From positions 124,001 through 188,000 of the forward strand of contig NZ_VIRS01000015.1 in assembly GCF_006912135.1 (NCBI RefSeq): a stretch of DNA of 64,000 nucleotides. Direction: 5' to 3'. Under the pieces are notes generated by a model that had not been told where the DNA came from, ran no database searches, and saw only the letters and a program-made list of their open reading frames with translations. Position 1 is the stretch's first letter, and each line of letters begins with the position of its first letter. The position numbers were made by a program, and so were the translations under genes. This DNA is from Cryptosporangium phraense (lineage in GTDB: Bacteria > Actinomycetota > Actinomycetes > Mycobacteriales > Cryptosporangiaceae). Shown here piece by piece: positions 45,727 to 47,866 of the stretch.

Positions 45727-45978
45727 ATGACCGTCACAGTGAGGGTCCAGAGGACCACGTCGATGACCGCGACGGTCGTGAACGCGCTGCTCACGTCGGC
45801 CGAGCGGTACGCCCACCTGGCGAGGATCGTGAGCGACCGGTCGGCCGCGGCCCGGCTCGCCGAGATGGCCGGCGACGCCGAGCGGCTGGCCGAGAAGCTG
45901 CTCGCCCGCCCGGCCCGTCAGACCGCGACGAAGTCGGCGACGACGCAGGAGAGGTTGTCCGGCGCCCCGGCGTCGTGA
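45727..45978 (+). CDS. Small hypothetical helical protein (83 aa)
   Basis: Starts MTVTVRVQRTTSMTATVVNA and is mostly helix (TSAERYAHLARIVSDRSAAA, RLAEMAGDAERLAEKLLARP). The final 20 residues are encoded antisense to the 3' end of the MerR-PP2C gene (61-base overlap). A G-run precedes the ATG. No family recognised; the codon pattern is reasonable. Confidence 0.45.
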   Translation: MTVTVRVQRTTSMTATVVNALLTSAERYAHLARIVSDRSAAARLAEMAGDAERLAEKLLARPARQTATKSATTQERLSGAPAS

Positions 45979-46952
45979 ACCAGCCGGACGAGCGCGCCCA
46001 CCACGTCGTCCGGGGTGTCCCCGGTGGTCAGCGCGGAGTGCAGCGCCGGGCGGGCGACGACCGCCGACACCCCGTCCGAGCAGAGCAGGTACCGGTCGCC
46101 GGGCAGCGCGGTGCGCAGGCCGAGGTCGGCCTCGACCGCGGACGCGCCGACGCCGAGCGCTCGCGTCAGCAGCGCCCGCTGCGGATGCCCGGCCGCGCCC
46201 TCGAGGCTGAGCCGGCCCTGGTCGATCTGGGTCTGGACCCAGGTGTGGTCGGTGGTGAGCTGCACCAGCTCGCCGGCGCGAACGAGGTACGCGCGGGTGT
46301 CCCCGACGTGCACGAGACCGAGCTGCGACCCGTTGCGCACCAGCGCGGTGAGCGTGGTGTCGCCACCCACCGCGCGAACCCGGCGGTCGGCGTCCTCGAC
46401 CGCGTCGACCAGGGTGCTCAAGAGCCTGGCGTCGGCCGGGCCGCTTTCGACGAGGGCCGCGATCGCGGCCGCGCTGGCGGCCGCTCCGGACGGGCCCCGG
46501 ACGCCGTCGGCGACGGCCAGCAGGTGATCGCTCGCGTGCACGGAGTCGTCGTTGACGTCCCGGACGTCGCCGGGCTCGCTCGCGGTCGCGTACCGGACGG
46601 TCAGCGTGGTGGACATGGTGTTCCTTCCCGACAGATGCTCGAGGAGAAGTCCGGCCACCCGGGCGCGGACCGCGTTCTCGGCGGTCACCCGTCGCCAGTA
46701 CGCGGCGACCGCCTCGGCCGCGGCCGGACCGTCCAGCGTGCAGACGGTCCGGATCTCGGCCAGCGGCATCCCGATCCGGCGCAGCTCGGCGATGAGCCGG
46801 GCGGTGTCGAGCTGGGCCGGGTCGTAGAACCGGTAGCCCGACTCCGGGTCCACCGCCACCGGCGGCAGCAGCCCCGACGAGTCGTAGAGCCGCAGCGCCT
46901 TCGGCGTCAGCCCGGAACGCCGGGCGAACGCACCGATGGTCAGCAAGCGCAC
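45918..46952 (-). CDS. MerR regulator fused to a PP2C-type Ser/Thr phosphatase
   Basis: 344 residues from GTG 46952, which lies nine bases after GAGGAGG (the ATG at 46961 is too close to it). Residues 1-70 are a MerR winged helix: LLTIGAFARRSGLTPKALRL, YDSSGLLPPVAVDPESGYRF. A helix (about 75-108) leads to a PP2C domain with metal sites DVNDDSV (D132-D136), VADGVRG (D149), GDTRAYLV, CSDGVSAVV and PDNLSCVV. It would join ligand or redox sensing on DNA to dephosphorylation, perhaps of itself or of a kinase target. No kinase is adjacent. Confidence 0.88.
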   Translation of the reverse strand: MRLLTIGAFARRSGLTPKALRLYDSSGLLPPVAVDPESGYRFYDPAQLDTARLIAELRRIGMPLAEIRTVCTLDGPAAAEAVAAYWRRVTAENAVRARVAGLLLEHLSGRNTMSTTLTVRYATASEPGDVRDVNDDSVHASDHLLAVADGVRGPSGAAASAAAIAALVESGPADARLLSTLVDAVEDADRRVRAVGGDTTLTALVRNGSQLGLVHVGDTRAYLVRAGELVQLTTDHTWVQTQIDQGRLSLEGAAGHPQRALLTRALGVGASAVEADLGLRTALPGDRYLLCSDGVSAVVARPALHSALTTGDTPDDVVGALVRLVHDAGAPDNLSCVVADFVAV

Positions 46953-46996
46953 GGGAGCCATCCTCCTCGCGCCGGCCACGGTGACCGGCGCGTTCC

Positions 46997-47027
46997 ACGC
47001 TGGGCCCGGCCCCCGGGTGAAGGTCAA
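46997..47027 (-). promoter_or_regulatory. Possible MerR-type promoter with a 19-base spacer
   Basis: On the minus strand TTGACC (47027-47022) is followed by TTCACCCGGG and, 19 bases on, CAGCGT (47002-46997). The TTGACCTTCACC -35 and long spacer are typical of promoters driven by MerR proteins. It overlaps the end of the aldo/keto reductase gene and would make the fusion self-controlled. Confidence 0.35.
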
Positions 47028-47866
47028 GCGCGGTCGAGCACCGCGAACTCCTCGTCGGTCAGCGCGATCCGCCCGGCGGCCAGGTTCTCCTCCAGGTGGG
47101 CCACCGACGACGTGCCCGGGATCGGCAGCATCACCGGCGAGCGACGCAGGAGCCAGGCCAGCGCGAGCTGGTTGATCGAGGCGCCGTGCCGGGCGGCGAC
47201 AGCGGCGATCGCCCCCTGCGAATCGGGCAGGCCGGTGCCGGCCAGCGGGAACCACGGGAGGAACGCGATGTCGTGCTTCTCCGCGTACTCCAGTACGTCG
47301 GCCGCGTCCCGGTTCACCAGGTTGAACAGGTTCTGCACCGAGGCGATCGGCGTCACCGCCCGGGCGGCTTCGACCTGCTCGACCGTGACCTCGGAAAGCC
47401 CGATGTGCCGGACCTTGCCCTCGTCGCGCAGGTCGGCCAGCGTCCCGACCTGGTCCTCGAGCGGCACCTGCGGGTCGACGCGGTGCAGCTGGAGCAGGTC
47501 GATGCGCTCGAGCCCGAGCGTGCGCAGGCTCAGCTCGGTCTGCTGGCGCAGGTACTCGGGCCGCCCGACCGGCACCCACTCGCCCGGCCGGGGCCGGGAG
47601 ACCCCGACCTTCGTCGCGATCACCAGGTCGGCCGGGTACGGGTGCAGCGCCCGCCGGACGAGCTCGTCGGTGACGAACGGCCCGTAGGAGTCGGCCGTGT
47701 CGATCAGCGTGACGCCGAGCTCGACCGCGCGCCGGAGAACCACGACCGCGGTGTCCTGGTCGGCCGGGAACCCGAACGTGCCGGGCCCGGTGAGTTGCAT
47801 GGTGCCGTAGCCGAGGCGGCCGACGTTCAGGTCGCCGCCGAGGGAGAACGTTGTCATGTCGTTCAC
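47024..47866 (-). CDS. Aldo/keto reductase
   Basis: 280 residues, starting at GTG 47866 or the ATG three codons later. (Beta/alpha)8 barrel with the full tetrad D56, Y61 (DTADSYG), K86 (IATKVG) and H128 (LQLHRVD). Landmarks LGLERIDLLQLH, KVRHIGLSEVTVEQVEAARA and PIPGTSSVAHLEENL place it near the general stress/AKR13-like group. It reduces aldehydes with NADPH. The XRE regulator at 47959 diverges from it. Confidence 0.9.
   Translation of the reverse strand: MNDMTTFSLGGDLNVGRLGYGTMQLTGPGTFGFPADQDTAVVVLRRAVELGVTLIDTADSYGPFVTDELVRRALHPYPADLVIATKVGVSRPRPGEWVPVGRPEYLRQQTELSLRTLGLERIDLLQLHRVDPQVPLEDQVGTLADLRDEGKVRHIGLSEVTVEQVEAARAVTPIASVQNLFNLVNRDAADVLEYAEKHDIAFLPWFPLAGTGLPDSQGAIAAVAARHGASINQLALAWLLRRSPVMLPIPGTSSVAHLEENLAAGRIALTDEEFAVLDRA

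What the first reader, a model, noticed from the sequence alone, without database searches (positions are those of the whole stretch)
45918..46952. MerR DNA-binding domain fused in frame to a PP2C phosphatase
A single frame encodes a MerR winged helix, its helix, and a complete PP2C domain with all metal motifs. A transcription factor carrying Ser/Thr phosphatase activity could dephosphorylate RNA polymerase partners, itself, or a kinase client at the promoter. Whether the MerR effector changes phosphatase activity is unknown to me.
Basis: partly seen in the sequence, partly recalled or inferred. Interest (0 to 1): 0.62.

Follow-up and report, generated by a model that had tools for sequence, protein, structure and literature searches.

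The report
Regulator-phosphatase gene with internal start
A bacterial gene-switch protein is joined to a protein phosphatase, and a conserved hidden start signal at the joint suggests that the same gene also makes the phosphatase on its own.

Summary
Window 46952-45918 (minus strand, GTG start, 344 aa) is one open frame: MerR winged helix, long helix, complete PstP-like PP2C domain. It is no sequencing error: 82 full-length fusions (window included) from at least five named actinobacterial families keep the frame. The architecture was already in print (PMC12088040).

In 80 of 82 the linker DNA carries a Shine-Dalgarno-like stretch followed in frame by ATG, GTG or TTG (window: GGAAGG 46628-46623, ATG 46616). 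The amino acids vary while the signal stays. Arg codons there are AGR in 51 of 65, against 3.5% elsewhere. mRNA structure dips around the site and GC3 falls after it. The short product would begin about where M. tuberculosis PstP begins. So the gene very probably yields two proteins, MerR-PP2C and a free phosphatase, as tipA yields TipAL and TipAS; 18 of 19 TipA-type genes pass a similar test. Like junctions occur in some MerR fusions to DnaN-like, GyrI-like and TPR-like domains; other subclasses lack them.

Upstream lie a conserved MerR-type promoter (19-nt spacer, 70 of 82) and a leader hairpin, suggesting autoregulation. No expression data exist here.

The parts
46997..47027 (-). MerR-type promoter: -35 TTGACC (47027-47022), 19-nt spacer holding a degenerate palindrome, -10 CAGCGT (47002-46997)
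   Evidence: for coordinates; 19-nt arrangement in 70 of 82 fusions, 1 of 1640 shuffles, 0 of 1441 random windows; a pattern made from four same-genus promoters, this one included, occurs once in the own genome at up to 3 mismatches, here
46969..46991 (-). leader stem-loop, 9 bp (46991-46983 with 46977-46969), 5-nt loop, one G-U
   Evidence: 84.3% of cells paired in 58 selected rows, covariation 0.233 vs 0.115 shuffled and at most 0.106 slid; but pairs with two-sided change (4 vs 3.5) and further pair types (13 vs 11.4) do not exceed shuffles, and the outer pairs are often open; window leader MFE -27.2, z -2.89; no Rfam match for 46500-47200
46962..46967 (-). Shine-Dalgarno AGGAGG of the full-length protein, 1 nt after the stem; start codon GTG 46952-46950
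   Evidence: median duplex energy -11.6 kcal/mol over the 76 of 82 in which a start was found, each taken as the best-SD candidate near the N-terminus
45918..46952 (-). full-length MerR-PP2C gene, 344 aa
46740..46940 (-). MerR winged helix-turn-helix (residues 5-71)
   Evidence: PF13411 E 2e-16
46632..46730 (-). long helix of MerR type, probable dimerisation helix (residues 75-107)
   Evidence: AlphaFold2 model; role inferred from MerR family
46623..46628 (-). internal Shine-Dalgarno-like GGAAGG inside codons Gly-Arg (GGA AGG)
45918..46616 (-). inferred second product: free PP2C phosphatase of 232 aa from internal ATG 46616-46614
   Evidence: N-terminus lines up with PstP; production not shown
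45924..46604 (-). PP2C catalytic domain (residues 117-343)

Best explanation
A one-gene, two-product, autoregulated phosphatase unit. Shown by sequence: one open frame for MerR-PP2C behind a conserved MerR-type promoter and a leader hairpin, and a conserved Shine-Dalgarno plus in-frame start codon at the domain joint. Inferred: ribosomes start at both sites, giving a dimeric DNA-bound MerR-PP2C (long form) and a free, presumably monomeric, PstP-like Ser/Thr phosphatase (short form). Inferred further: the long form binds its own 19-bp-spaced promoter and untwists it as MerR activators do. The PP2C domain takes the place of the usual sensor domain, so its state (phosphoprotein, metal, or phosphorylation by a kinase) would tell the long form to switch on more phosphatase. 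This is the logic of TipAL/TipAS with an enzyme in place of a drug-binding domain. Confidence by step: fusion real 0.99; internal start used 0.9; autoregulation 0.8; short form an active phosphatase 0.75; PP2C as sensor 0.35. The score below is for fusion plus internal start plus autoregulation.
For: Start codon at the joint: ATG 54, GTG 26, TTG 1, none 1 of 82; I count L033's GTG as spurious, so 80 of 82. In 53 rows under 85% identity: 44 ATG, 6 GTG, 1 TTG, 2 none. Duplex energy <=-5 at 79 of 81 joint starts, against 406 of 1436 other in-frame ATG/GTG/TTG; non-redundant 51 of 51 against 230 of 850. Arg codons AGR 51 of 65 against 3.5% elsewhere; non-redundant 29 of 39 against 61 of 1654. Val at the commonest start position (+7) is GTG in 24 of 24. 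The SD is spelt by different residues (GR, GK, RK, WK, EGG, QEEQ) in different lineages. GC3 of codons +1 to +6 is 215 of 298 against 272.3 expected for those amino acids, with no drop at -20 to -10 (525 of 561 against 518.1); 40-nt MFE is -7.3 at the start against -14.0 in the rest of the gene (51 non-redundant genes). Plasmid copies not used before: 5 of 5 with SD, start and promoter (5 of the 10 records covering 80% or more). TipA-type positive control: 18 of 19. Subclasses of MerR fusions that I had sorted as lacking a joint start show no MFE dip (-14.9, -14.6), those with one do (-7.5, -6.7, -8.9). PstP's domain begins at about the same residue as the short form. Promoter.
Against: No protein, ribosome-profiling or N-terminal data were available. 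The synonymous-shuffle test with the protein fixed was weak gene by gene: p<0.05 in 18 of 82, below the null mean in 64 of 82, because the encoded residues already spell much of the SD and the search zone was wide. The internal SD is weaker than the N-terminal one (median -6.5 against -11.6). The joint is the strongest internal site of its gene in only 30 of 81, top three in 64 of 81. Two fusions have lost the start (L013, L033), independently on the tree; L013 also lacks the promoter. L111 lacks the joint altogether. The MFE dip is broad, from about codon -12 to +10, so linker amino acids may add to it; GC3 is also low at -9 to -1 (the SD zone) and slightly low at +7 to +18. Rows are related, so counts are not independent.
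Confidence: 0.8

Rival explanations
1. The SD-like joint is an elongation pause that helps the two domains fold in turn; only the full-length protein is made.
For: SD-like sequence at a domain boundary.
Against: A pause needs no start codon, yet a start codon (ATG, GTG or TTG, three different amino acids) follows at SD-compatible spacing in 80 of 82. Synonymous GC3 falls just after the start. TipA-type genes, where a short form is known for S. lividans, look the same.
Confidence: 0.06
2. Vestige: MerR and PP2C were once two coupled genes, and the old RBS and start lingered after the stop was lost.
For: The joint looks like an overlapping gene start; in the TPR-like class stand-alone domain genes exist (L247, L248).
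Against: No unfused MerR|PP2C pair was seen: none of 21 PP2C-only loci holds a relative of this MerR nearby. A vestige should decay at synonymous sites, but AGR codons and start codons persist among proteins 44-69% identical to the window's.
Confidence: 0.06
3. One reading: a single fused protein acts as a promoter-bound phosphatase on polymerase partners or on itself; the internal start is used little.
For: Strong N-terminal RBS (median -11.6) and conserved promoter.
Against: Does not account for the conserved internal initiation signals.
Confidence: 0.08

Closest known systems
TipAL/TipAS of Streptomyces (TipA class of MerR regulators; PMC7762955, passages seen)
   Same: MerR winged helix plus C-terminal domain; two start codons in one gene give a long and a short form (stated there for S. 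lividans tipA); autoregulated; SD+start signature in 18 of 19 TipA-type loci
   Different: C-terminal domain is PP2C, not the TipAS antibiotic-binding domain (no PF07739 match); short product inferred, not shown; ligand unknown
PstP / Stp1-type PP2C (PPM) phosphatases, e.g. M. tuberculosis PstP (1txo, 2cm1)
   Same: domain fold, catalytic motifs, N-terminal start position
   Different: fused to MerR; a separate, less similar PP2C (46% identity to this one) lies elsewhere in the own genome (L069)
MerR-PP2C domain architecture listed by PMC12088040 (passages and section 3.4 with its Fig. 5 legend seen)
   Same: MerR and PP2C in one protein, as I read the legend
   Different: the parts seen only list the architecture and say nothing of an internal start
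BmrR-like MerR regulators with GyrI-like effector domain (name recalled)
   Same: MerR plus C-terminal domain; one subclass shares the joint start (10 of 11; 7 of these 11 loci were also in the first survey)
   Different: effector is a ligand-binding domain; another GyrI-like subclass of 8 loci has no start with SD at the joint (L177 has one at residue 135, inside the domain), and 8 further GyrI-like loci are mixed

Membership tests
MerR family (PF13411/PF00376) | N-terminal winged HTH with MerR signature | tested here: met
   PF13411 E 2e-16, PF00376 E 7.4e-11, both over cut-off
MerR family (PF13411/PF00376) | long helix after the HTH (dimerisation helix) | tested here: met
   helix 75-107 in the model, pLDDT 68-95 along it; the dimer itself was not modelled
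MerR family (PF13411/PF00376) | target promoter with 19-20 bp spacer | tested here: met
   19-nt spacer in 70 of 82 upstream regions; palindrome judged by eye and degenerate in the window; binding not tested
PP2C/PPM phosphatase | conserved metal- and phosphate-binding residues | tested here: met
   invariant columns R131 D136 D149 G150 D218 D293 D332 N333 in 33 rows; roles recalled from PstP literature
PP2C/PPM phosphatase | fold | tested here: met
   Foldseek 1txo_B E 1.8e-23, TMt 0.89
PP2C/PPM phosphatase | Mn/Mg-dependent Ser/Thr phosphatase activity | not testable with these tools
   needs assay
NCBIfam NF033484 Stp1/IreP equivalog | score over curated cut-off 230 | tested here: not met
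   134.6 bits, so not filed as an equivalog
TipA class | TipAS domain PF07739 | tested here: not met
   no match at E<=1; works like it, is not a member
TipA class | internal in-frame start at the joint | tested here: met
   sequence signature only
TipA class | two proteins made in the cell | not testable with these tools
   needs Western blot or ribosome profiling

The most novel reading that the evidence does not exclude
TipAL/TipAS is not a curiosity but the founding case of a recurrent actinobacterial gene design. One-component MerR regulators carry a built-in ribosome-binding site at the domain joint, so one autoregulated gene supplies both the DNA-bound sensor and a free copy of its C-terminal domain. 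Here that domain is an enzyme, and a phosphatase would sense phosphoprotein load to set its own amount. Some MerR fusions to DnaN-like, GyrI-like and TPR-like domains would follow the same plan.
Probability: 0.6. Interest if true: 0.75.

Novelty: new variant of a known kind. Interest (0 to 1): 0.62.

Why it matters
In five annotated records such genes carry one full-length product under either name, 'MerR family transcriptional regulator' (2) or 'protein phosphatase 2C domain-containing protein' (3), which hides a possible second, free phosphatase. If right, many actinobacteria have an additional inducible PstP-like phosphatase set by a feedback loop in one gene. The dual-product rule, known from tipA, would then extend to several other MerR fusions and is testable with one start-codon change per gene.

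Tried and rejected
Sequencing error or hidden stop: rejected, frame open in 82 fusions. Separate genes in relatives: none of 21 PP2C-only loci has a MerR relative nearby. Conserved operon partner: apart from frames that overlap the gene itself, no neighbour family is shared by more than 19 of 54 loci (crude ORF clustering; the neighbour families were not identified). Wider regulon: a pattern made from four same-genus promoters is found once in own genome, at its own promoter, up to 3 mismatches. Known RNA family for the leader hairpin: none in Rfam over 46500-47200. Baseline from 28 MerR hits of the own genome: my script took 26 of them and misplaced several, so I drew nothing from it. Two TipA scripts used too strict a motif and too short a zone; one search replaced them and used 19 of 30 loci, those I judged to hold the MerR part (others had short or unclear upstream frames); it asks for any start with energy <=-6 in a 22-codon zone and has no chance rate of its own; where the known TipAS start lies is recalled. 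The first synonymous-shuffle test was weak. GC3 after the start is not lowered in the GyrI_A class (53 of 54) and only slightly in DnaN_A (26 of 30, p 0.08). For one search I sorted loci into with/without-start groups by looking at their joints; L178 was put in DnaN_B though it is closer to DnaN_A (it returns as L233), and L126 has a -6.1 site at residue 135. Leader alignment A2 uses 58 of 82 rows picked by eye mostly for a visible stem, which favours the stem; an automatic search found a stem of 6 bp or more in 64 of 82, 58 of them followed by an SD-like stretch, and a few of these stems are the operator. Literature: searches turned up, as far as their listings show, no paper on MerR-PP2C function or on internal starts in MerR fusions other than TipA; opened were only passages of PMC7762955 and passages plus section 15 of PMC12088040.

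Full report
What was checked. Residues 5-71 are a MerR winged helix (PF13411, E 2e-16). Residues 134-334 match PP2C_2 just over its cut-off (24.2 against 24 bits), and the better-fitting NCBIfam Stp1/IreP model gives E 3.8e-39 but stays under its equivalog cut-off. By sequence the PP2C half is closest, among solved structures, to PstP of Mycobacterium tuberculosis (2cm1, 1txo; E about 4e-42). An AlphaFold2 model from 33 rows has mean pLDDT 90.8, with a helix 75-107, lower confidence at 91-120, and a PP2C fold whose best solved match is 1txo (E 1.8e-23, 43% identity). Arg131, Asp136, Asp149, Gly150, Asp218, Asp293, Asp332 and Asn333, which line up with PstP's catalytic motifs, are invariant in those 33 rows; the roles of these residues are recalled, not tested.

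Is it more than an accident? Yes. One scan of genome contigs brought back 56 loci. I set aside L058 (same MerR, other effector), L059 (PP2C without MerR) and L061 (MerR fragment), leaving 53. Adding the window, three same-genus genomes and 25 loci from a search of 394 genomes of the class (40 of 394 had a match at E<=1e-55, some of them PP2C only) gave 82 full-length fusions, all with the frame open. The named families are Micromonosporaceae, Streptosporangiaceae, Streptomycetaceae, Pseudonocardiaceae and Actinopolymorphaceae. Left out: L096 (frame changes within PP2C), L111 (a deletion that removed the joint), further fusions fetched by other searches (L103-L110 and L112, mostly repeats), and PP2C-only hits. 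Of 21 PP2C-only loci none holds a relative of this MerR nearby. No two of the 82 are identical in DNA, but close relatives do occur. Copies also sit on plasmid records of Streptomyces and Nocardioides, annotated as one full-length gene under either name in the five looked at. The architecture is already in print: PMC12088040 lists MerR among the domains of PP2C proteins (section 3.4 and figure legend seen).

At the joint the DNA reads GGA AGG AAC ACC ATG (window 46628-46614). The same design, a purine-rich Shine-Dalgarno-like stretch and then an in-frame start codon, appears in nearly all 82. The start is ATG in 54, GTG in 26, TTG in 1 and absent in 1 of 82. The GTG assigned to L033 lies further on and I count it as lost, so 80 of 82. 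In 53 rows under 85% identity: 44 ATG, 6 GTG, 1 TTG, 2 none. The amino acids that spell the SD differ: Gly-Arg, Gly-Lys, Arg-Lys, Trp-Lys, Glu-Gly-Gly, Gln-Glu-Glu. What is kept is thus a nucleotide signal. On a tree of 69 rows the label ATG/GTG/TTG/none needs seven changes, two of them losses.

Statistics. Binding energy to the 16S tail is at or below -5 kcal/mol for 79 of 81 joint starts, against 406 of 1436 other in-frame ATG/GTG/TTG of the same genes. In the non-redundant set it is 51 of 51 against 230 of 850, and Arg codons in the SD zone are AGG/AGA in 29 of 39, against 61 of 1654 elsewhere. Val at the commonest start position is GTG in 24 of 24. In 51 non-redundant genes that keep the start, GC3 drops in codons +1 to +6 (215 of 298; 272.3 expected for the same amino acids) but not at -20 to -10 (525 of 561; 518.1 expected). 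It is also low at -9 to -1, the SD zone, and slightly low at +7 to +18. A 40-nt mRNA window folds at -7.3 kcal/mol on the start, against -14.0 in the rest of the gene; the dip is broad. These are ordinary marks of bacterial translation starts. Against this, the gene-by-gene synonymous shuffle was weak (p<0.05 in 18 of 82), the joint is the best internal site in only 30 of 81 genes, and the internal SD is weaker than the N-terminal one (medians -6.5 and -11.6). Five plasmid copies not used before agree, 5 of 5.

What the short product would be. It starts a few residues before the segment that aligns with PstP's own N-terminal strand, so it would be a complete free PstP-like phosphatase of 232 residues without the DNA-binding domain and the long helix.

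Precedent and controls. S. lividans tipA makes TipAL and TipAS from two start codons of one gene (PMC7762955, passages). With a similar measure, 18 of 19 TipA-type loci show an SD and start at the TipAS joint. Other MerR fusions of the same subfamily show it too. The first survey had 5 of 5 TPR-like loci. In the dedicated searches, at energy -6 or lower, 7 of 8 DnaN-like, 10 of 11 GyrI-like 'A' and 9 of 10 intact TPR-like fusions show it (L238 is at -5.9; contig-edge pieces L243 and L249, L239 with a stop, L245 without a matched MerR half, and the stand-alone L247 and L248 were not counted). Many of these loci are the same as in the first survey (5 of 8, 7 of 11 and 5 of 10). A GyrI-like 'B' subclass (8 loci) and a DnaN-like 'B' group (5 loci) lack it at the joint, and their joints show no structure dip (-14.9 and -14.6, against -7.5, -6.7 and -8.9 in the classes that have it). 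I sorted these groups by looking at the joints, so only the structure result is an independent contrast. L178, put in DnaN_B, is closer to DnaN_A. Eight further GyrI-like loci are mixed. The GC3 dip is absent in GyrI_A and slight in DnaN_A, so the classes are not alike in every mark.

Control region. TTGACC or a near form, 19 nt, then a CAnnnT-like box occurs in 70 of 82 upstream regions, in 1 of 1640 shuffles and in 0 of 1441 random windows of the same loci. The pattern was written after looking at these regions, and 23 of 82 also fit it at 22 nt. A 19-bp spacer is the mark of MerR-activated promoters (established knowledge). Between promoter and start lies a stem-loop one nucleotide before the SD. 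In 58 rows chosen for a visible stem, 84.3% of cells pair and the covariation score is 0.233 (0.115 shuffled, at most 0.106 slid); one central pair is CG in 25, GC in 22, UG in 6 and UA in 4. Two other measures (pairs changed on both sides, further pair types) do not beat the shuffles, and the outer three pairs are often open. G-U pairs favour RNA over a DNA palindrome, but the row choice leans towards the stem. Rfam has no match. The operator pattern occurs once in the own genome and no neighbour family is shared by more than 19 of 54 loci, which fits a self-contained, autoregulated unit.

Mechanism. I take the gene to be an autoregulated two-product phosphatase unit, with long-form MerR-PP2C on its own promoter and short-form free PP2C. 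That PP2C acts as the sensor, so that phosphoprotein load or metal state sets its own expression, is inference from its position and from TipA. No expression or activity was shown here.

Verdict. Observation confirmed; interpretation partly supported. The fusion is a known architecture; the conserved internal start makes it a new variant of a known kind, with a wider rule for MerR fusions as the bold reading.

Noticed in passing
L058 5001-5852: Microbispora corallina has the same MerR half (65% identical over 3-120) with joint LSGKDTAM but an effector that clusters with GyrI-like ones instead of PP2C, as if effector modules are swapped at the internal start.
   Followed up: partly
L072, L117, L123, L166, L167, L226-L232: MerR fused to a DNA polymerase III beta-clamp-like domain (Pfam scanned on L117 and L119 only) with SD and start at the joint; a second group (L119, L126, L162, L164) lacks it at the joint.
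   Followed up: partly
L124, L127, L130, L169, L173, L234-L249: MerR fused to a domain with only a weak TPR match (scanned on L124); joint start conserved; short stand-alone frames of the same domain exist (L247, L248).
   Followed up: partly
window 46969-46991 and leaders of relatives: Leader stem-loop directly before the ribosome-binding site, not in Rfam; role unknown (mRNA 5' protection, translation control or second operator).
   Followed up: partly
window 47022-47027: The -35 box overlaps the stop codon (47026-47024) of the upstream aldo/keto reductase-like gene (identity judged by eye), so the two units are tightly packed.
   Followed up: no
L221, L222, L223, L224, L225: MerR-PP2C genes lie on plasmid records of Streptomyces (4, linear) and Nocardioides (1, circular), so the unit may move between strains.
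   Followed up: partly
L111: Variant in which a deletion joins the MerR winged helix directly to the later part of PP2C, losing the joint start and first catalytic motifs; perhaps a decaying copy.
   Followed up: no
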